Positions 1,743 through 10,770 of a DNA stretch of 38,228 bases are shown piece by piece. Source of the DNA: Candidatus Didemnitutus sp. (GTDB lineage Bacteria; Verrucomicrobiota; Verrucomicrobiia; Opitutales; Opitutaceae); assembly GCA_030681265.1 (NCBI GenBank), contig JAUXXD010000216.1, positions 1 to 38,228 of the forward strand, in the 5' to 3' direction. Below the pieces are notes generated by a model that saw only the letters and a list, made by a program, of their open reading frames with translations, did not search any database and was not told where the DNA came from. Both the position numbers and the translations under genes were made by a program. Position 1 is the stretch's first letter, and each line of letters opens with the position of its first letter.

Positions 1743-2819
1743 ATGCGAAAGGCCTCTATTGTCGGGGTGTTGCTAATATCGGGCGCATTTTCAGTAGCGC
1801 TTTGCGCCCACGGCGATTCCACGGCTGCGGCAAGCCCAGAGCCGACCAAGGGGCGCAGCGCCATTATGGCGCCCGGCGCTGCGTCGATCATGTTGGCAAA
1901 GGGAGAACAGCTGGCGCGTGACTTTTCCGCCGAACGAGTGCGGATTTCTCTTTTGTCTCGGCCGTTTTTTCAGGCTTCGGCGGGCGACTGGCCCACCCTT
2001 GAAGTGGGTCCTTCCTCCTTGGTGTTTGTGCAGGATGCAAGTGGGGGCGGCCTCATTCTCTTAGGCGATGGAGAACAGGCTTTACCGGTTTCGATCGAAC
2101 TAGGAGCGGATGGCCGCAGTAAAGACCTTCTCGGTTTAAGTCTCGAATATGACCGCTTGCGGGGTGAGGCAGCGCTGCAAGCCTTTGGTAAGACTTATGC
2201 AATTGAAGCGTCGCCCGATAGTCACATCACTTCGGTTGTGATTACGGCGGGCGCGGCAGATTGGGTCTTGGAAAAGTTGGAATTCGAGTCGAATGAGCCC
2301 GCTTCGGTGGCGCGCGTTCCGAATCTGACTGCGGCAACGACGCCCGGGAATCGAGCCAAGCCCGAATCAATTAGGTTGAAGCGGCAACTAGCATTGCAGG
2401 ACGCCATTGCCTTCTTCGGTCGGGGACAAGACGCAGCTGGCGAGGCCGCATTGGATTTACAGGGCAGGGGCCTACACGGAACGGCTGCGTGGCGTCTCGA
2501 TTGCGCCAATCGTCTAACTTGGGTAGCGCTCGAACTTTCGCGCCGCGGTGAGGCGTCAGCTGCGGTTCTGGCGGCGCAAAAAGCGGTGGACAAACTGCGC
2601 CCCTTGTTTGCCGCAAATCAAAGGAGTGAGGCCACAGTGGTGGCCAGCGCTTCCGAACTCGAAGGGTTTCTGGTAGAGAGATTTTTCGGAGACTTGGAAC
2701 AAGCGCGCGCGAGTTACAGCAGGGCAGCAGGGGTTATGCCCGGCAGCGTCGTGGCTGAAGCCGCCATCGGGCGGTTAGAGCGAGCGGAACAAGAGTCGCG
2801 AATTCGCGCCAAGCGTTAA
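1743..2819 (+). CDS. Secreted protein of unknown function with helical-repeat C-terminus
   Basis: I do not recognise this 358-residue protein. Residues 1-22 form a Sec signal peptide (basic MRKAS, then a hydrophobic core ending near ALCA), so it should be exported. Residues about 60-200 look beta-rich (alternating hydrophobic stretches such as GLILLGDG). From about 215 the chain is Ala-rich and helical, with segments resembling tetratricopeptide units (AAVLAAQKAVDKL; LEQARASYSRAAGVMPGS). The gene ends 19 bases before the rhs start on the same strand with no terminator between, so co-transcription is likely. That suggests a periplasmic or surface partner, chaperone or export aid of the RHS protein, but this is positional inference only. 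Confidence 0.75.
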   Translation: MRKASIVGVLLISGAFSVALCAHGDSTAAASPEPTKGRSAIMAPGAASIMLAKGEQLARDFSAERVRISLLSRPFFQASAGDWPTLEVGPSSLVFVQDASGGGLILLGDGEQALPVSIELGADGRSKDLLGLSLEYDRLRGEAALQAFGKTYAIEASPDSHITSVVITAGAADWVLEKLEFESNEPASVARVPNLTAATTPGNRAKPESIRLKRQLALQDAIAFFGRGQDAAGEAALDLQGRGLHGTAAWRLDCANRLTWVALELSRRGEASAAVLAAQKAVDKLRPLFAANQRSEATVVASASELEGFLVERFFGDLEQARASYSRAAGVMPGSVVAEAAIGRLERAEQESRIRAKR

Positions 2820-2838: not shown

Positions 2839-5800
2839 ATGTTGCCTTCACTTTTACGGTTTAGCCTTAGTTGCACCATTGCCATTCTTGTCGGACTTGC
2901 TTCGCCAGCGCGCGCGCAGTCTATTCCAGAATCAGCACAGATAAATCCGTTCCTTGGGGTGCCAGTGCAGATTCTCGTTCTCGCCTTCGGGAAAGCGGAG
3001 CACGGTGAACCGGCAGAATTCTGGGCTCAAGGGAACGGGCTTATGCCATCTTCGCTATCCGACTACTCCTACCATCTCAACGCGGGCTTCCCGATTTGGT
3101 ATGGAGTTCAAGAGGCCAGCTACCAGATGACTCCTGGTGAGGACTATGTGATTTACGCTGATAGCATCTCGTATCCGTCAAGTGTTGCAAAGACCAAGAT
3201 CAACCTGCGGGCCCCAAGAGGGTATCGCGTATTCATCGATGGGGTGGATCGCACCAGTCTAGAGGTAAATGGAGAGAGTCACAATTACCTGATTCGGATA
3301 GTTGCGACCGACCCAGACTCGACGGTTGCTAGGGCCGGAGAGGCGTCATCCCTTGCGACTGGGGGTATCAACTGGCAAGTGGGACTCGGCGCACTCCGGA
3401 ATGGCAAATCCGCCGGATTTCTTGAGATTCTCAGCGGGGGCACGGCTTCTAGCTGGGGTGGTATTTTCACCCCAGCCGCGTTGGACTACCGGAAAAACTG
3501 GAGCGAGGTCGCAGTTTATCGGGTTAGCAATCACATCCGTCAGGTTATTGCTAATGAAGCGGCGGTAGATGTCGTGACAATCAGTGGCGACTCTTTCGAG
3601 TTAAGATTTTACAATCCCAGTCAGGTCGTAGGGACGTCGGGGTTGCGCACGTTTGAAGGCGTGCCATTTGTGACCTACAAGATTGAGAAAGGAAGCACAG
3701 ATACATCGCTTAAGCTTACAAGCACAACCCGGGATCTAGGCAGTAGTAGTGCAGTGGCAAGAGTTGCCCAAACGACCTTGGTGCGAACCGGAGCCGCGCC
3801 CAACTTTGTATGGACATTGCATAATTGGCATTCGGTAAATGCGGCTGCTCCCACTGTCGAAATCTCGGAGTCGGCGGGCACGGTGCAGAACCGGACGGAA
3901 ACAATCATCCTTCGCGTTCCCAATGGAGACATTGCAACCAAGATTGAAAATGGATTTGCGCTCAAACCATGGGGCGAGGTTTTGGTGTCTGAAAAACTTG
4001 GCACGACCGAGGCGATCACAAAAGATTTCGACTACTACCAGAACGCAAACGATATCAGTAATTACACGTTTCTCAAGTCAATCAGTGTAGTCGGCGGAGG
4101 ATGGGAGGCCTACGAATACTATCCAATCACAACGCATTTGGCTGGCACCTTGAAATACAAATTTCGGCCATTTTTGAGCACCCCGGCTTCCCCCTCGGTC
4201 AATCCGAGCCTCGGACAAGTCACCTATTTTGAATATTCGACAGACCCCTACGGCAAGCCAACTCGGCCGGCGCTGATCCAAACATCGATCAACTCGGGTG
4301 CCGGTTCGGTGACGACGGCGAAAACCACGATTACCTATTCCGAGCAAAGCGTAACGTTTAACACCTATCCCTTTCATCTGGTGCAGGCGACCCGCCGGGA
4401 CTACTCGGATGCATCGACTTACTTGCAGACTGTGACGAAATACTTTCGCGAGAACACTGCGAACGAGTTTTTTCGCAATTTGCCTCATTCCGTGCTCCAC
4501 CCAAATGGGGTGAAGCAGGTCTTTGCGCATCAGCGAGGAAGTTGGAATGGCACGACATTTACGAAGTCAGGCAACTATGGTTTTGATAATGATTCGGCCA
4601 GTAGGACCATAGTGATTACCGGGATCGACGGATCGTCCTACACTAATCATGACAACTACGACATCGAGGACTTGAGCTTGGTTAGTGGGAAATCAACGAT
4701 GGAGGTTCAGATTCGAGATTCTCGGTCAAAGTTGGTTCGCTCCGAACTTTACATCTGGAATGGAAGCTGGAATTTAAGCCTGAGTCCTGCTGCGGCAACC
4801 ACCTTTACCTACGATGCCGCTGGATTTCTGACGAAGCGCTTAGATGGTAGTGGAGCAGAAGTTTCTGCGGTGTATCGCGGGGCCCTAAAAATTACAGACG
4901 TGGATGTCGCGGGTGTGAAACGAAACTACATCTATGACGCTGGGGGCCGGATTGAAACCATTACTAAGGAGGCTGGTCCAATAACAATACTCAAGTATGA
5001 TGCCGCTGGACGAATTATTGAGACAAAAGTAGTCAATAGAATTGAAGAGGAGGAAGAAGAAGAGGAAGAAGAGCGGCAGTATTTCGCGGGTTGGGAATTC
5101 GACGACGCTTTGAATGCAGAACAATGCTTTGCTTTCGGCGAGGGCGCGCAAGAATGCGAGGAGCCGGAAGAGGAAGAGGAAGAGGAAGAGGATGAAGAAG
5201 AGGAAGAGGATGAGGAGCCACTTCTTGTTTTGGTTACATCCAGCACTTACGATGATGCTGGTCGCGTAAAAGTAGTCATAGCTCCAGGAAATATTGTCAC
5301 GAACTACAGCTATGTCGTTGCGAATAATCGAATGACCGTTGCCGTTACGGGTGGAGGCGATAAAATTACGGAAAGCTATGCTGACGGACGTCTTAAGTCG
5401 GTCACGGGCTCGGGCGTTGTAGCCGAATACTATACTTATGGGATCGACGGGGCGGGTAACCTCACATTGGAGCGGCGGCTGAGTTCTACAACGTCCAGCA
5501 ATGTTTCAACGCTGACTCGTGATTGGCTAAACAGAGAGGTGTCTCTTGTTCAGCCTGCGTGGAGTGGCGGCACGGCAACGCAAACCTGGAGCTACAATAC
5601 GAACGGACAACTCGCTAAAATCACTCAGCCGGGATCGGCTAACAAACTTTTCCTCTACGACGAACTCGGGACGCTTTCTCGAGAGGGCTTGGATGTCGGT
5701 GCCACCACAGGGGTGCTTGATCTTGCGAGCACTGATCGCATCACGGACTACGAATGGACCTATTTCCTCAGGGACAACAACTGGTGGCGCCGTGAAACGA

Positions 5801-8800
5801 AAAAAATCTATGCGACAGCATACAATGCGGCGACCACACAAACAGGCCAGCTCGAGACCCAACTCAACGGCTTCGCGGCGGCAGAAAGTGGCTTTCTGCG
5901 CTTGGCCCGCAGCGACAGCACCGATGTTTTCGGAAATGTCACCACGGCCTATACAGAGATGCATTTCGCGACCAAAACCGTTGTTGCAACTAACGCCATT
6001 CTGGCAGATTTGACTAAACTTTCTGTGCAGACACAGGTTAACGGATTGCTGAAATCGGTGCGCGACCGAGCCGGTCTTACGACAGTGCATAAATACGACG
6101 GACTTGAGCGACAGGTTTCAACGGTCGATTCACGGAACAATGCCCAAACCGTCAATTTCTTTGTCGGCACGAATCTAGTTCAAAAGGTTAGAGATGGTGC
6201 AGGTGTTGCACAGGCGACCTACACCTACGATACGGCCGGTCGCATCGCTACCATTACAGATGCGCATAACGAGGTAACTCGGTATGCCTACTCGACACGG
6301 AATGAGCGCACTTACGAGTGGGGAAGCGCAATTTATCCAGTCGCTCATACCTACAACGAGTATGGACAGAAGCAAACCATGAAGACCTATCGGGGGGGCA
6401 CAAACTGGAATGACGAAACGTGGCCGTCTGCGACCGGTGACGCCGATACGACGACCTGGAGCTATCAGGAGAGCACTGGATTACTTACTGCCAAAACGGA
6501 TAATTCAAACAATGCGGTCACCTATACCTATACTTCGGCCAGACAGGTTAAAACGCGCAAGTGGGCTAGAACGATTCTGATCGGCGGAACGCACGTGCCC
6601 GTTACCACGACTTACGAATACAGCACAACAACCGGAGAGCCTGACACGGTCTCCTATAACGACGGAACGACGGGAGTGGTGTTTTCATTCAATCGCCTCG
6701 GACAATTGACGTCTGCTTCGCAAATGGGGGGAGCGGGCCTTGTCACAACGTTAGATCCTTGCGTATGCGGGAAGCTGCTTGCAGAGATTCTGGATCCCAC
6801 ATTCTTCGGGAATCGACGAATTGACTACGAACTCAACTTCGCCACGGGATATGATAAAGGCCGCAGTATGGGTTATGCGCTCAAAGTCGGCACGACTCCG
6901 GAGCAGACGATCAGCTACGGCTACGAAACTGACGGACGATTCAAATCCCTTGTCGCCGATGGGATGACCTTCAACTACACTTACGCAACCAACTCTCACC
7001 TGATTGCGGGCGTCTCGCAGTCCGGATCCAACTGGACCCAGTCCCGCACGTGGCTTGCCAAGCGCAACATCCTCGATGTTATCGAAACCAAGATCGGCAC
7101 TACATCGAAAGCCAAATTTAACTATCACCACGACGCCGGTGGTCGGATCGATTGTGTCGAAAAAACGGGCGAATTGTTCAACCGCTACGGAACTTCCAGT
7201 GAAGGCCTTCACACCAACTATGGGTATAATGCTCGTGCCGAACTGACCTCCGAACTAACCAAACTGCGCGACAGTGATTCGGTCCTGACGGGCCGCACTG
7301 ATACTTACTCTTACGACAACATCGGCAACCGACAGGAAGCTAGTCACAATGGAAATGTGGCGACCTATACGTCAAACGGCCTCAACCAATACATCACCCG
7401 CACGGTGCCGGGTGTGTTCGATGTCACCGGGGCGTCTGCTTCTACCACGGTGACTGTGGGCGGTTCTGCCGTTGATGTGGCTCGGCATGGGGAATATTAT
7501 TTCAAGGGACACCCGTTGGACAACAGCGAAGCACCGGCATTTACGGGTATCGCTGTTAATGACGGCACAACCTCAGTAACGGTGCCTGCATTCGTGCAGG
7601 GTTCTCCCGAGGGAATGGGGCCATACGACGCGGACGGCAACTTGCTAAACGACGGTCGATGGAAGCGCGTCTATGATGCCGAGAACCGCCTGATTGAGAT
7701 GGAGGCGATAGTTTATGGCACGGGTGCTCCGCGGCAGAAGCTGAAGTTCGCCTACGATTACCTTGGTCGTCGCGTTGGAAAGAAAGTTTTCAACCATACA
7801 GCAGCCCCAGAAGCCCCGGCTTGGGTGCTGGTGTTTGAACGGCGATTCGTGTATGACGGTTGGAACATGATCGCGGAATTGGAAGTCAACGGCACCACGA
7901 TCAGCAAATTGCGCACTTATGCGTGGGGTTTAGACTTGTCTGGCTCGCGACAGGGCGCAGGCGGGATTGGCGGACTCCTAGCCGTCCAAGAAGGGGGTGA
8001 CACTTATCTACCGGCCTATGACAGTAATGGCAATCTCCATGGGCTCCTAAAAGCTACCGATGGAACCTTCGTCGCGGAGTATGAGTATGATGGGTTTGGG
8101 AATACGCTGCGGTCAAGCGGTTCATTTGCGGCAACTAATCCATTCCGCTTTTCAACCAAATACATGGATATCGAGACGGGACTATTTTACTACGGCCGGA
8201 GATACTATTCGCCTAGCTTGGGGCGATTTATCAACCGAGATCCGATCGAAGAAAAGGGAGGGGTTAATTTGTATGCATTTGTTGGCAACAACGGAATCGG
8301 TCGCACCGACTTTATGGGTTTGAGTGAAAACGACGATAAACTAAAATTAATTAATTATAATGATAAATCTGTATTAATAGATCCTTTCCCGGTTACGGCG
8401 GACAAAATCAAGATAATATTCAACGTTCACTTTTTATTCGAGAAAACCACTATTCGCTTGCCATTTGGATTAAGCGACGCAGGAAATAATGCCTCGGAAG
8501 AAGCCCCAAACAACACGATCAAAGATTTTGACTGTGACAAGATTAAGAAGGCAATGGCGGGTGACAAAACTGCGCTCGCAGAGCTAGGGAAAACCAATGC
8601 AGTTGTAGGCGGTGCTATTACCGCAGCTGAAAATTTATTCCGCCGCTCGGAGTATATGGGGCAGCTTCTCAATACCTCTGACATTGGGGCGCGTTATGAC
8701 GTGCGGCATGAATTTGGTGTTAGCATTAACGGCGCAGGCCAAATGGGGAGGGTTATGCAAGATCAAGATGGCCACTGGTCTGATGCCGACACACTAGCTG

Positions 8801-9072
8801 ACCCTCAGGGCGTTGCATTCGTTCATACCCATCCATACTGGCAGGGTGGACGATCTGGAAATTTTAGTGCCGGAGATATAAATTGGGCGCTCAAAAGTGG
8901 CCGAGATATCTACCTAGTTGGTGCTGGAGGCGCCGTGAGTGTGTTCTCGCCAAACGGGCAGGATACGCAAGAGATCAGATCGATCTTAGCGCGCAGTGTC
9001 GGTGCCGGTAATCTCGACGACGCGACCTTGAAGGAGCTTCAAAAGATAGGTGCATCGAAAGGGTGTAAATAG
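2839..9072 (+). CDS. Giant secreted RHS/YD-repeat protein with C-terminal toxin-like domain
   Basis: A 2077-residue protein. Residues 1-27 are a Sec signal peptide ending ARA-Q. An N-terminal beta-rich region (about 30-590) is followed by a long run of YD repeats (YDAAGFLTK, YDAGGRIET, YDDAGRVKV, YDTAGRIAT) that should form the hollow RHS shell. Residues 735-794 carry an unusual acidic insert. The hallmark RHS-associated core is at about 1780-1828 (YYGRRYYSPSLGRF, then NRDPIEEKGG and NLYAFVGNN). After the core comes a 249-residue tip unrelated to the repeats. In polymorphic toxin systems the core marks where a variable toxic domain is joined, self-cleaved and kept inside the shell. Export here appears to rely on a signal peptide; no VgrG, PAAR or TcB-type partner is present. 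Three small genes follow within 3 bases or with overlap. Confidence 0.92.
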   Translation: MLPSLLRFSLSCTIAILVGLASPARAQSIPESAQINPFLGVPVQILVLAFGKAEHGEPAEFWAQGNGLMPSSLSDYSYHLNAGFPIWYGVQEASYQMTPGEDYVIYADSISYPSSVAKTKINLRAPRGYRVFIDGVDRTSLEVNGESHNYLIRIVATDPDSTVARAGEASSLATGGINWQVGLGALRNGKSAGFLEILSGGTASSWGGIFTPAALDYRKNWSEVAVYRVSNHIRQVIANEAAVDVVTISGDSFELRFYNPSQVVGTSGLRTFEGVPFVTYKIEKGSTDTSLKLTSTTRDLGSSSAVARVAQTTLVRTGAAPNFVWTLHNWHSVNAAAPTVEISESAGTVQNRTETIILRVPNGDIATKIENGFALKPWGEVLVSEKLGTTEAITKDFDYYQNANDISNYTFLKSISVVGGGWEAYEYYPITTHLAGTLKYKFRPFLSTPASPSVNPSLGQVTYFEYSTDPYGKPTRPALIQTSINSGAGSVTTAKTTITYSEQSVTFNTYPFHLVQATRRDYSDASTYLQTVTKYFRENTANEFFRNLPHSVLHPNGVKQVFAHQRGSWNGTTFTKSGNYGFDNDSASRTIVITGIDGSSYTNHDNYDIEDLSLVSGKSTMEVQIRDSRSKLVRSELYIWNGSWNLSLSPAAATTFTYDAAGFLTKRLDGSGAEVSAVYRGALKITDVDVAGVKRNYIYDAGGRIETITKEAGPITILKYDAAGRIIETKVVNRIEEEEEEEEEERQYFAGWEFDDALNAEQCFAFGEGAQECEEPEEEEEEEEDEEEEEDEEPLLVLVTSSTYDDAGRVKVVIAPGNIVTNYSYVVANNRMTVAVTGGGDKITESYADGRLKSVTGSGVVAEYYTYGIDGAGNLTLERRLSSTTSSNVSTLTRDWLNREVSLVQPAWSGGTATQTWSYNTNGQLAKITQPGSANKLFLYDELGTLSREGLDVGATTGVLDLASTDRITDYEWTYFLRDNNWWRRETKKIYATAYNAATTQTGQLETQLNGFAAAESGFLRLARSDSTDVFGNVTTAYTEMHFATKTVVATNAILADLTKLSVQTQVNGLLKSVRDRAGLTTVHKYDGLERQVSTVDSRNNAQTVNFFVGTNLVQKVRDGAGVAQATYTYDTAGRIATITDAHNEVTRYAYSTRNERTYEWGSAIYPVAHTYNEYGQKQTMKTYRGGTNWNDETWPSATGDADTTTWSYQESTGLLTAKTDNSNNAVTYTYTSARQVKTRKWARTILIGGTHVPVTTTYEYSTTTGEPDTVSYNDGTTGVVFSFNRLGQLTSASQMGGAGLVTTLDPCVCGKLLAEILDPTFFGNRRIDYELNFATGYDKGRSMGYALKVGTTPEQTISYGYETDGRFKSLVADGMTFNYTYATNSHLIAGVSQSGSNWTQSRTWLAKRNILDVIETKIGTTSKAKFNYHHDAGGRIDCVEKTGELFNRYGTSSEGLHTNYGYNARAELTSELTKLRDSDSVLTGRTDTYSYDNIGNRQEASHNGNVATYTSNGLNQYITRTVPGVFDVTGASASTTVTVGGSAVDVARHGEYYFKGHPLDNSEAPAFTGIAVNDGTTSVTVPAFVQGSPEGMGPYDADGNLLNDGRWKRVYDAENRLIEMEAIVYGTGAPRQKLKFAYDYLGRRVGKKVFNHTAAPEAPAWVLVFERRFVYDGWNMIAELEVNGTTISKLRTYAWGLDLSGSRQGAGGIGGLLAVQEGGDTYLPAYDSNGNLHGLLKATDGTFVAEYEYDGFGNTLRSSGSFAATNPFRFSTKYMDIETGLFYYGRRYYSPSLGRFINRDPIEEKGGVNLYAFVGNNGIGRTDFMGLSENDDKLKLINYNDKSVLIDPFPVTADKIKIIFNVHFLFEKTTIRLPFGLSDAGNNASEEAPNNTIKDFDCDKIKKAMAGDKTALAELGKTNAVVGGAITAAENLFRRSEYMGQLLNTSDIGARYDVRHEFGVSINGAGQMGRVMQDQDGHWSDADTLADPQGVAFVHTHPYWQGGRSGNFSAGDINWALKSGRDIYLVGAGGAVSVFSPNGQDTQEIRSILARSVGAGNLDDATLKELQKIGASKGCK
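5041..5220 (+). repeat. GAA/GAG low-complexity tract encoding poly-Glu
   Basis: Two runs of GAA/GAG codons (about 5044-5073 and 5158-5217, mostly a GAAGAG hexamer) encode Glu/Asp-rich blocks flanking about 30 ordinary residues. The tract interrupts the YD repeats at residues 735-794 and is in frame throughout. Slippage of the six-base unit would change length without breaking the frame. Confidence 0.85.
8323..9069 (+). other. Variable C-terminal tip of the RHS protein: JAMM/MPN-like domain
   Basis: This is residues 1829-2077, after the RHS core. The DNA becomes clearly AT-rich right after the core (from about 8325), typical of toxin-tip exchange. The motif H1996-T-H1998-P followed by S2010 and D2013 matches the HxHP...SxxD metal site of JAMM/MPN metallopeptidases. 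E1958, 38 residues upstream, sits where the catalytic Glu is expected. The H-to-D spacing (15) is longer than in AMSH-type enzymes. JAB-like toxins and the DUF4329 family at RHS C-termini have similar motifs. A zinc-dependent protease or deubiquitinase-like activity is inferred, not shown. Confidence 0.6.
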
Positions 9073-9074
9073 CC

Positions 9075-9500
9075 ATGAAACGAATAGCCAAATTAGCGCT
9101 GCTCCTTTTGGTCACCTACTTGTCGATAATTTCAATGAAGCGCATGGGGAGAGAGACCTTTTCCATCAGATGCTCTCCGCCTGATCACCGCTTTGAAAAT
9201 TCGGGAGATCCTCGCGGCGTCCTCGCATTTGCTTTGAAGGAGATCGATATGAGAAAATCTTGGGTGATTGTTAGGTGGCGCAATCCTGGAAAAGATAAAT
9301 TGGGTTTCATGCAAAACTGCTTACCGCCATTTTTGCTTACTTCCGACATTTCACTCCAAAGCGTTTCGTCTGAAAATATCACTATTTCGATCGATACGCC
9401 GTTTTGGACGAACGCACGGGACGTTAGAGAAGCGATTTTAGACGGTCTCCCTAAGTCGAGACATTACTCGGGTTATGTGTTTACCCTTTCTGAAAATTGA
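9075..9500 (+). CDS. Small membrane-anchored or exported protein; candidate immunity protein
   Basis: A 141-residue protein with an N-terminal hydrophobic helix (residues about 5-20, KLALLLLVTYLSIIS after MKRIA) that is either a signal peptide or a membrane anchor. The rest is soluble, with two cysteines (positions about 33 and 83). I recognise no family. The start is two bases after the rhs stop and the end overlaps the next gene, so it is part of the same transcript. In polymorphic toxin loci the gene directly behind the toxin tip is usually the cognate immunity gene, which makes this the leading candidate. A periplasmic location would fit an RHS protein that is exported by Sec. There is no sequence proof. 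Confidence 0.7.
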   Translation: MKRIAKLALLLLVTYLSIISMKRMGRETFSIRCSPPDHRFENSGDPRGVLAFALKEIDMRKSWVIVRWRNPGKDKLGFMQNCLPPFLLTSDISLQSVSSENITISIDTPFWTNARDVREAILDGLPKSRHYSGYVFTLSEN

Positions 9501-10132
9501 TCGCCCCAAACAAAACAGAGAGCCCTGAGGAGCGCGAAAAAAGAAAGAATCGGTGTAGGACTTACCTCAATGGAATCAACGGGAGTTATGCTGCTTACTG
9601 GAATACGCGCGCGAGTATTCAGGAACTCACCGGCCAGAGTAACTTGGCTTCTGTCTCACACGTGATTGCGGACGGCGGCGCGGTCACGGAATCGGCGCTT
9701 GAGATGATGGCGAAAAGCAATTGGACGCTTTTCCAAAACGTTCCGGAACGTATATTGAACTACGGGAATTTTGCGGGAAAAGTCTACGCTGGTGGAGCGG
9801 CTGCGCTTGATCTGGTGAACGCCGGTGCCGAGCTTTATGCGAATGGATGGACGGGAGATGTGACTTATAACTTGGGAAGTGCAGGTGCAAATGCGCTTGC
9901 GCTTTACTCCGGCAGTCCTTGGGCGAAGGGATTTGCGCGTCATCCGGCAGTAGGTTTTGGTGTTGGAGCTGGGGCGTTCGCGATCGGATTTTCCGTGGAA
10001 TACGCCAATTTCCAACAAAGGAAAGGGGAGCTTCAATCGTTGAAGGATCATTTGGGGAGAACTGATAATAACTTCCAGTTGGCGCAGCAGAAATACCAGC
10101 AGGAAAACTGCGGCGAATTTTATGGGAACTAA
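9497..10132 (+). CDS. Unknown Gly/Ala-rich protein in the rhs module (TTG start)
   Basis: The reading frame gives 211 residues if it starts at the TTG at 9497, whose last bases lie in the preceding stop (TTGA overlap), a typical coupling arrangement. No ATG is available early in the frame. The first 25 residues are charged. The middle (about 95-165) is Gly/Ala-rich and mildly hydrophobic (GKVYAGGAAALDL, VGFGVGAGAFAIGFSVEY) and could insert in or contact membrane. The end is Gln-rich and helical. No family recognised. It could be a second immunity protein, or an orphan cassette left from an older RHS tip, since the Gly/Ala middle resembles pre-toxin segments. Expression through the overlap with its neighbour is plausible. 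Confidence 0.6.
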   Translation: MIAPNKTESPEEREKRKNRCRTYLNGINGSYAAYWNTRASIQELTGQSNLASVSHVIADGGAVTESALEMMAKSNWTLFQNVPERILNYGNFAGKVYAGGAAALDLVNAGAELYANGWTGDVTYNLGSAGANALALYSGSPWAKGFARHPAVGFGVGAGAFAIGFSVEYANFQQRKGELQSLKDHLGRTDNNFQLAQQKYQQENCGEFYGN

Positions 10133-10370
10133 GATGCGGCAATTTTGGCTTTCGCTCGCCGCTATAGCGTGCTCGGCGATGTTTCTATTTGTTTCATTCG
10201 TGGTTATTTTTACCGGGACGTTTCCTTGGTATGGGAGAATATTAATAGGAATAATCTTCATGCCGATTTTTGCGCTCACGGCCCTCGGGCTCTTTGCTGA
10301 ATTGGATTCGAGTCGGAGGATCGGGTGGTTGAAGAAGTTTAGAAAGCCGATTGATCCAGATGGAAAATAG
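10122..10370 (+). CDS. Small two-helix membrane protein in the rhs module
   Basis: An 82-residue protein with two hydrophobic segments (about 8-30, LSLAAIACSAMFLFVSFVV; and about 37-58, RILIGIIFMPIFALTALGLF) and a basic C-terminal tail (GWLKKFRKP). It is probably an inner-membrane hairpin. The ATG at 10122 overlaps the previous gene by 11 bases; a second ATG at 10134, just after that gene's stop, would remove four residues and is equally possible. Last gene of the module before the repeat region. Its membrane nature and position fit an immunity or accessory role, but there is no direct evidence. Confidence 0.6.
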   Translation: MGTKMRQFWLSLAAIACSAMFLFVSFVVIFTGTFPWYGRILIGIIFMPIFALTALGLFAELDSSRRIGWLKKFRKPIDPDGK

Positions 10371-10443
10371 GGGCCAAGCCGAAGACGTCATGTCTTGACT
10401 CTTGACAAGCTGCTCTCTCAGCCGAGGCCAAGCGAAGATACAA
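10371..10443. repeat. 73-bp direct repeat, copy 1
   Basis: Identical to 10526-10598; the two copies begin 155 bases apart. Copy 1 begins right after the stop of the last gene in the rhs module. The unit contains an internal dyad AAGAC-GTCAT-GTCTT. Both ends carry GGCCAAGC-type sequence (GGGCCAAGCCGAAG at the start, GAGGCCAAGCGAAGATAC at the end). Confidence 0.9.
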
Positions 10444-10525
10444 AGCAGGCGGCACGTCTCGCGCCAGCTCTGCGCGGACTCCGATCTGTCACGAGCCCTG
10501 CTTCCTCCTCCGCTTCGCTTCGTCC

Positions 10526-10598
10526 GGGCCAAGCCGAAGACGTCATGTCTTGACTCTTGACAAGCTGCTCTCTCAGCCGAGGCCAAGCGAAGATACAA
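10526..10598. repeat. 73-bp direct repeat, copy 2
   Basis: Second identical copy of the 10371-10443 unit. The 82 bases between the copies are GC-rich and contain no gene. The structure suggests an intergenic repeat family duplicated in tandem. No transposase or terminal inverted repeats are seen. Confidence 0.9.
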
Positions 10599-10770
10599 GG
10601 CCTTGGGGTTTGGGGTTCGAATTTGTGATTCAAGCGGGCGTTCTACGTTATTTACGTTGTCACGTCCCTGTTGCCGCGCCTTCGACCAACAAATGTCGCC
10701 TGGCTCGTCTCAAGCGCAGCACGCCAAGTTCAAACGCACACGGTGCCACGTCGGCGTAGAAGAGAGGCGC

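What the first reader, a model, noticed from the sequence alone, without database searches (positions are those of the whole stretch)
8323..9069. RHS toxin tip with a JAMM/MPN-type metal site
The tip after the RHS core is AT-rich and carries H1996-T-H1998-P, S2010, D2013 and an upstream E1958, matching a JAMM metallopeptidase site with an unusually long His-to-Asp spacing (15). Such a domain released by an RHS shell would be a proteolytic or deubiquitinase-like toxin. RHS proteins with a Sec signal peptide and no secretion-system partner are poorly described.
Basis: partly seen in the sequence, partly recalled or inferred. Interest (0 to 1): 0.72.

Follow-up and report, generated by a model that had tools for sequence, protein, structure and literature searches.

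The report
RHS toxin with JAB-type metalloenzyme tip
A bacterium of the Verrucomicrobia group carries a large shell-like, probably exported protein whose tail looks like a metal-dependent JAB enzyme toxin, a distant cousin of a toxin family already described, next to a likely immunity protein.

Summary
In detail: ORF 2839-9072 (2077 aa) is an RHS protein with a signal-like N-terminus and core ending at residue 1828, and the tip carries H1996, H1998, S2010, D2013. The tip is a divergent relative of DUF4329/Tox-JAB-2, a JAB-fold tip of polymorphic toxins named in 2012, so the idea is not new. Pfam DUF4329 scores it below cut-off (14.2 of 28.6 bits), but a profile of 11 DUF4329-type relatives gives 29.8 bits against at most 4.5 for shuffled tips. 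Two details are corrected. The metal-site glutamate is most likely E1938, not E1958: that column is Glu in 22 of 22 relatives and E1938 aligns to it. The His-to-Asp spacing of 15 is ordinary here (relatives 10 to 44). A low-confidence model matches JAMM/MPN structures best. The next gene encodes a small protein with an N-terminal hydrophobic segment, a candidate immunity protein. That hints at an envelope target, but a matched control (17 of 20 non-JAB RHS tips have such partners) shows that this is not specific, so substrate and compartment stay open. A deubiquitinase role has no direct support. Verdict: a new, divergent member of a known kind.

The parts
2839..9072 (+). RHS/YD-repeat polymorphic toxin, 2077 aa
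   Evidence: PF05593 61.6 bits, TIGR03696 80.8 bits
2839..2916 (+). Probable Sec signal peptide (residues 1-26, ends SPARA)
   Evidence: read by eye in the sequence printed; no predictor run
8086..8322 (+). RHS-associated core, ends TDFMGL1828, the likely self-cleavage border
   Evidence: TIGR03696 1750-1828; border letters; self-cleavage is inferred from known RHS proteins (recalled)
8323..9069 (+). Toxin tip, residues 1829-2077
   Evidence: cores shared with genus relatives while their tips differ
8599..8970 (+). JAB/DUF4329-type domain, about residues 1921-2044
   Evidence: profiles and alignments; model; fold matches
8650..8652 (+). E1938, most likely metal-site glutamate
   Evidence: column is Glu in 22 of 22 relatives; tip placed there with posterior 0.7 and 0.9
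8710..8712 (+).
   Evidence: falls in a non-conserved column; 38 residues to H1996, below the relatives' 44-75
8824..8832 (+). H1996-T-H1998
8866..8877 (+). S2010 to D2013
9075..9500 (+). Candidate immunity protein, 141 aa, N-terminal hydrophobic segment
   Evidence: starts 2 nt after the toxin stop, best 13-residue hydropathy 2.69; no match above a curated cut-off in Pfam or NCBIfam and no match in PHROGs or PADLOC
9497..10132 (+). 211 aa ORF of unknown role, TTG start overlapping the previous gene
   Evidence: no family above cut-off
10122..10370 (+). 82 aa ORF with hydrophobic segments (by eye), possible second partner
1743..2819 (+). Upstream 358 aa protein with signal-like N-terminus; relatives also lie just upstream of RHS genes in two genus mates
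   Evidence: 2 of 6 regions examined

Best explanation
The locus encodes a Sec-exported RHS polymorphic toxin. The RHS shell encloses the tip, probably cleaves it after L1828, and frees a JAB-fold domain related to DUF4329/Tox-JAB-2 with a complete set of metal-site residues (E1938, H1996, H1998, S2010, D2013). The freed domain most likely acts as a metal-dependent hydrolase against competing bacteria, and the adjacent 141-aa protein most likely gives self-immunity at the membrane or in the periplasm. Shown by computation: RHS core and border, JAB/DUF4329 kinship, retained residues, adjacency and N-terminal hydrophobic segment of the partner. Inferred: export, self-cleavage, metal binding, toxicity, immunity. 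My preferred substrate is a protein or peptide bond in the envelope (about 0.42), with a nucleic acid next (about 0.35).
For: RHS core TIGR03696 to residue 1828. A profile of 11 DUF4329-type relatives scores the tip 29.8 bits; of 1000 shuffles 632 were scored, best 4.5. hhalign of the tip against that alignment: probability 93.7, E 1.9e-7. All 13 rows of A5, the tip included, match DUF4329 at E<=1 and 8 of 13 match Prok-JAB; of ten sibling tips scanned, L120 (28.6 bits) and L124 (25.2) pass the Prok-JAB cut-off of 25. In 22 relatives Glu is kept in 22, His1 in 21 as aligned, His2, Ser and Asp in 22; the tip keeps all five. Model m9e0ce545e9bf: the 50 Foldseek rows shown (of 246 matches) are JAMM/MPN-type chains by title or by my knowledge of the entries; VIA best 1oi0 Z 8.6, rmsd 3.4 over 92; RadC 2qlc Z 7.9. 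In the window's genus 9 of 13 genomes hold a match to this RHS core region and the tips that follow differ. The partner starts 2 nt after the toxin stop. In that genus the Tox-REase-9 and Ntox10 tips have partners without a hydrophobic N-terminus and the Tle1-like lipase tip has a lipoprotein-like partner.
Against: Pfam DUF4329 score 14.2-15.7 is below the cut-off 28.6. The model is weak (pLDDT 56.7, pTM 0.53), its alignment was built from DUF4329-type rows, and no Foldseek match reached E 0.001; cytidine deaminases also appear (Z 6.5). A single-sequence model (pLDDT 41) puts E1938 in a helix. Envelope reading: partners are hydrophobic at the N-terminus for 17 of 18 JAB-type tips against 10 of 20 other tips of the genus, but with other rules for picking the partner this becomes 17 of 18 against 11 of 20 or 15 of 18 against 11 of 20 (p 0.007 and 0.06), and in a matched set from the other JAB-bearing genomes 17 of 20 non-JAB tips have such partners too (p 0.34 and 0.72), so it is not specific to JAB tips. 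Papers call enterobacterial DUF4329 tips RNases (passages). No close homologue of the tip was found.
Confidence: 0.7

Rival explanations
1. The tip is a metal-dependent nuclease, as Zhang et al. proposed for toxin JAB domains by analogy with RadC.
For: PMC3482391 passages; RadC 2qlc among the best structural rows, Z 7.9; enterobacterial DUF4329 tips called RNases in PMC10469887 and PMC7216683 passages; Tox-JAB-2 listed among tested toxin domains in a PMC9635880 passage.
Against: Partner 9075-9500 has an N-terminal hydrophobic segment, unlike the partners of the two Pfam-named non-lipase tips (Tox-REase-9, Ntox10) of the genus, though in related genomes such partners are common whatever the tip; four gammaproteobacterial DUF4329-type proteins stand alone with a signal-like N-terminus (by eye).
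Confidence: 0.35
2. A deubiquitinase-like effector against eukaryotic predators.
For: Many of the JAMM/MPN fold neighbours are deubiquitinases.
Against: An adjacent immunity candidate suggests bacterial targets; Zhang et al. report that toxin JAB domains do not keep the residues lining the ubiquitin-tail tunnel; fold neighbours reflect what has been solved.
Confidence: 0.07
3. A JAB-like fold that is no longer an enzyme, or an RHS surface protein not used as a toxin.
For: No experiment exists; orphan tip with no close relative found.
Against: All five site residues kept although the rest has diverged.
Confidence: 0.12

Closest known systems
Tox-JAB-2 / DUF4329 (PF14220)
   Same: C-terminal tip after RHS; E, H[ST]H, S, D all kept; Sec (T2SS) route listed for the family
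   Different: below Pfam cut-off; HTHP where the collected RHS-tip members mostly have HTHG; partner shows no known immunity family
Tox-JAB-1 (Zhang et al. 2012)
   Same: RHS, Sec route, exported immunity (Imm65 lipoprotein) (passages)
   Different: described there from Bacteroidetes only; not compared directly, and I did not check whether Pfam holds a model of it; DUF4329 was the only Pfam family to hit the tip at E<=1
Prok-JAB (PF14464), JAMM/MPN+ proteins such as AF2198 and PfJAMM1
   Same: HxHP...S..D and fold matches; two sibling tips pass the Prok-JAB cut-off
   Different: longer His-Asp loop, 58 residues between Glu and HxH, RHS setting
Bacterial teneurin-like proteins (PMC13018210)
   Same: YD-shell toxins with signal peptide, no obvious delivery machine, adjacent immunity gene (passages)
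   Different: teneurin-specific domains were not looked for here

Membership tests
DUF4329 / Tox-JAB-2 | Pfam gathering score 28.6 bits | tested here: not met
   14.2 bits, 15.7 bits for the trimmed domain
DUF4329 / Tox-JAB-2 | E, H[ST]H, S, D | tested here: met
   all five align to the family columns; Glu placement posterior 0.7 and 0.9
DUF4329 / Tox-JAB-2 | similarity to member profile beyond chance | tested here: met
   29.8 bits against best shuffle 4.5; hhalign E 1.9e-7
DUF4329 / Tox-JAB-2 | immunity of Imm-NTF2 family 2 | tested here: inconclusive
   partner 9075-9500 has no Pfam or NCBIfam match above cut-off
JAMM/MPN+ metallopeptidase | MPN fold | tested here: inconclusive
   best matches are MPN but model pLDDT 56.7 and Foldseek E 5.2e-3 at best
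JAMM/MPN+ metallopeptidase | second His to Asp spacing near 11 (recalled) | tested here: not met
   15 here; 22 relatives 10-44
JAMM deubiquitinase | ubiquitin-tail tunnel residues and isopeptidase activity | not testable with these tools
   no reliable structure, no assay
RHS polymorphic toxin | RHS core before a variable C-terminal tip | tested here: met
   related cores with other tips in the genus
RHS polymorphic toxin | adjacent immunity gene | tested here: inconclusive
   gene 2 nt downstream; function untested
RHS polymorphic toxin | self-cleavage at a DPxGL-like border (recalled) | not testable with these tools
   border reads TDFMGL

The most novel reading that the evidence does not exclude
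RHS-borne JAB domains of Verrucomicrobiota form a diverse group of Sec-exported toxins that act as metalloproteases (or amidases) in the cell envelope of rivals and are countered by unrelated exported immunity proteins, a use of the JAB fold outside the ubiquitin, RadC and cofactor-biosynthesis settings.
Probability: 0.25. Interest if true: 0.62.

Novelty: new member of a known kind. Interest (0 to 1): 0.36.

Why it matters
The substrate of JAB-type polymorphic toxins is unsettled in the passages I saw: nuclease by analogy, peptidase by fold. A divergent member with intact site residues and a partner that looks exported gives a clean test, since the compartment in which it kills separates the two. 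It also suggests that the Pfam DUF4329 model misses part of the group: 14 of 259 genomes of the phylum matched the wider profile at E<=0.001, while the Pfam model rang in 4 of 377 at E<=0.005 (samples and thresholds differ, and the wider profile contains the tip).

Tried and rejected
Close relatives of the tip: none in genome contigs (62 stretches matched a pattern, none confirmed), plasmids (at E<=10 only chance-looking pieces), phages (the same). 177 genomes of the order gave one weak match besides the window (in a short unrelated ORF); 387 genomes of the phylum gave no other at E<=0.001; with the domain alone, 135 of 377 genomes matched at E<=0.5 (window included). I scanned the 40 loci held by then for H.H[PGA]...[ST]..D: besides the window's copies only L014 (two strings) and L034 (one), all in proteins or frames that look unrelated, so I took these hits as chance. 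Only 30 of the matches, the window's own included, had loci; one unlisted-as-locus match (G277:C1:497591-497731, E 0.338) later proved to be the genuine relative L047.

In favour of E1958: several sibling tips have E-[FYH]-G (L084 REFGTVYI, L123 REFGLRV), which resembles HEFGVSI, and the single-sequence model places E1938 in a helix.

Exported-partner argument: first looked strong (17 of 18 against 10 of 20, p 0.003), then failed the matched control (17 of 20, p 0.34). A recount with the nearest ORF gave 17 of 18 against 11 of 20 (p 0.007) and, with less overlap allowed, 15 of 18 against 11 of 20 (p 0.06); matched control p 0.34 and 0.72. Kept only as a weak hint. In one search, 19 JAB-type loci were given (L043 had no ORF; the one miss, L041, is followed by a gene that looks like a transposase) and 24 others (3 ran off the contig, 1 had no ORF). 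JAB-type loci include near-copies (L117/L119, L118/L125, L041/L045). In one search, 30 loci were given, out of many more core matches in those genomes: 4 without a core ORF found, 2 off the contig, 1 without partner, 3 JAB-type dropped. The export test is a hydropathy threshold, not a signal-peptide predictor.

A shared immunity family: partners of seven JAB-type tips and the 211-aa ORF showed no significant similarity to each other. PDB sequence hits of profile A5 to zinc-finger protein BCL11A (best E 0.0072) and others are taken as chance. No Rfam family reached its gathering score in the window. Promoter- and terminator-like sites were no more frequent than in shuffles.

In the 22-row alignment I left out L119, L045, L042, L044 (copies) and L046/L080 (a truncated copy). 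L122 counts as the one miss for His1 only because of its alignment; it has HSH.
Full report
What is there. The window is contig C45 of a 3.56 Mb draft genome. The fetched relatives place it in the Verrucomicrobiota: a 'same phylum' genome has a 3,660,783-base contig, the length of Lentisphaerae bacterium WC36, and a 'same class' genome a 38,220-base contig, the length of an Akkermansia MAG contig. This placement is my inference. ORF 2839-9072 encodes 2077 aa with a signal-like N-terminus, RHS repeats (PF05593) and an Rhs_assc_core ending at residue 1828. The tip is 1829-2077.

What the tip is. Pfam gives one sub-threshold hit, DUF4329, over the HTHP..FSAGD..YL stretch (14.2 bits, cut-off 28.6). 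Zhang et al. 2012 list Tox-JAB-2 as DUF4329 in Pfam (PMC3482391, passages). I collected DUF4329-type domains from the same phylum (4 of 377 genomes) and from a public genome collection (9 loci). A profile of 11 of them scores the tip at 29.8 bits; of 1000 shuffles of the tip 632 were scored and reached at most 4.5. Profile comparison gives probability 93.7 and E 1.9e-7. A wider profile that contains the tip then matched 14 of 259 genomes of the phylum, the window's own included; most of the new matches read as RHS tips with an HxH...D site, and two of ten sibling tips scanned pass the Prok-JAB cut-off. The tip is thus a divergent JAB-superfamily domain next to DUF4329. I do not file it as a Pfam DUF4329 member because the curated score is not met.

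The metal site. In 22 relatives aligned without the tip, Glu is kept in 22, the first His in 21 as aligned, the second His, Ser and Asp in 22. Adding the tip places H1996, H1998, S2010 and D2013 with top posterior and E1938, not E1958, in the Glu column (posterior 0.7 and 0.9 with two aligners). The Glu-to-His distance in relatives is 44 to 75; E1938 gives 58, E1958 gives 38. E1938 also leaves room for the strands expected between Glu and HxH, as I read the sequence. Against this, some siblings have an E-F-G motif like that around E1958, and a poor single-sequence model puts E1938 in a helix. The second-His-to-Asp spacing runs from 10 to 44 in relatives, so 15 is not unusual.

Fold. A model of residues 1921-2077 with eight remote rows has pLDDT 56.7 and pTM 0.53. 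Its best PDB matches are JAMM/MPN proteins (Foldseek E 5.2e-3 at best; 5ld9 probability 1.00), with VIA Z 8.6 to AF2198 and 7.9 to RadC. The alignment rows are themselves JAB relatives, so this is consistent support, not independent proof.

Setting. Of 13 genomes of the genus, 9 match the window's RHS core region and 10 hold an RHS core over cut-off, 26 core matches in all. The tips after these cores are clearly different, the usual tip-swapping of polymorphic toxins. One genus mate, G526, has another JAB-type tip with a much longer His-Asp insert. The gene 2 nt after the toxin encodes 141 aa with an N-terminal hydrophobic segment; the two following ORFs are unexplained.

Where it might act. 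JAB-type tips are followed by partners with a hydrophobic N-terminus in 17 of 18 cases against 10 of 20 for other RHS tips of the genus (p 0.003). The contrast depends on how the partner is picked: a recount gives p 0.007 or 0.06. In the genus the partner type agrees with the likely target where Pfam names the tip: Tox-REase-9 and Ntox10 tips have partners without it, a Tle1-like lipase has a lipoprotein-like one. But a matched control from the other genomes bearing JAB-type tips gives 17 of 20 for non-JAB tips (p 0.34; 0.34 and 0.72). The pattern is therefore general to RHS toxins in those lineages. Four gammaproteobacterial relatives are stand-alone proteins with a signal-like N-terminus and no RHS (by eye).

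Literature. Zhang et al. suggested that toxin JAB domains may be nucleases because residues lining the ubiquitin-tail tunnel are missing. Two later papers call enterobacterial DUF4329 tips RNases, one citing Ma et al. 2017, which I did not read (passages). [quoted passage not shown] passage). Searches for 'DUF4329' found 5 papers and for 'Tox-JAB' 2 in the held library; I saw passages of some of them only. Polymorphic toxins with a signal peptide and RHS repeats under the Sec/T2SS route are listed by Zhang et al., and teneurin-like toxins without an obvious delivery machine are described in PMC13018210 (passages).

Verdict. The exact member is new and divergent, the Glu probably needs correcting, and the deubiquitinase label should be dropped.

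Noticed in passing
window 5044-5217 (residues 736-793 of the RHS protein): Two long acidic runs (10 Glu; 17 Glu/Asp) inside the YD-repeat region. In the 12 other RHS loci scanned the only run of six or more was a short EEEEED elsewhere in one genome, G527.
   Followed up: partly
window 10371-10446 and 10526-10601: A 76-nt direct repeat, 99% identical, with similar fragments beside RHS genes of G328, G527 and G529; ORFs that look like REP-type transposases lie near RHS genes in G328 (by eye).
   Followed up: partly
window 9497-10370: A 211-aa ORF with glycine-rich hydrophobic stretches and an 82-aa hydrophobic ORF follow the candidate immunity gene; possibly an orphan toxin-immunity pair.
   Followed up: no
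window 1743-2819: 358-aa protein with signal-like N-terminus upstream of the RHS gene; relatives lie directly upstream of RHS genes in G527 and G529 (2 of 6 regions), a possible accessory factor.
   Followed up: partly
   Followed up: no
L076, L077, L079, L082: Stand-alone DUF4329-type proteins with a signal-like N-terminus and no RHS in gammaproteobacteria; their role is unclear.
   Followed up: no
L068 3931-6599: A gene that looks like a tyrosine recombinase and one that looks like a primase lie downstream of the G526 JAB-type RHS toxin, suggesting a mobile island (by eye).
   Followed up: no
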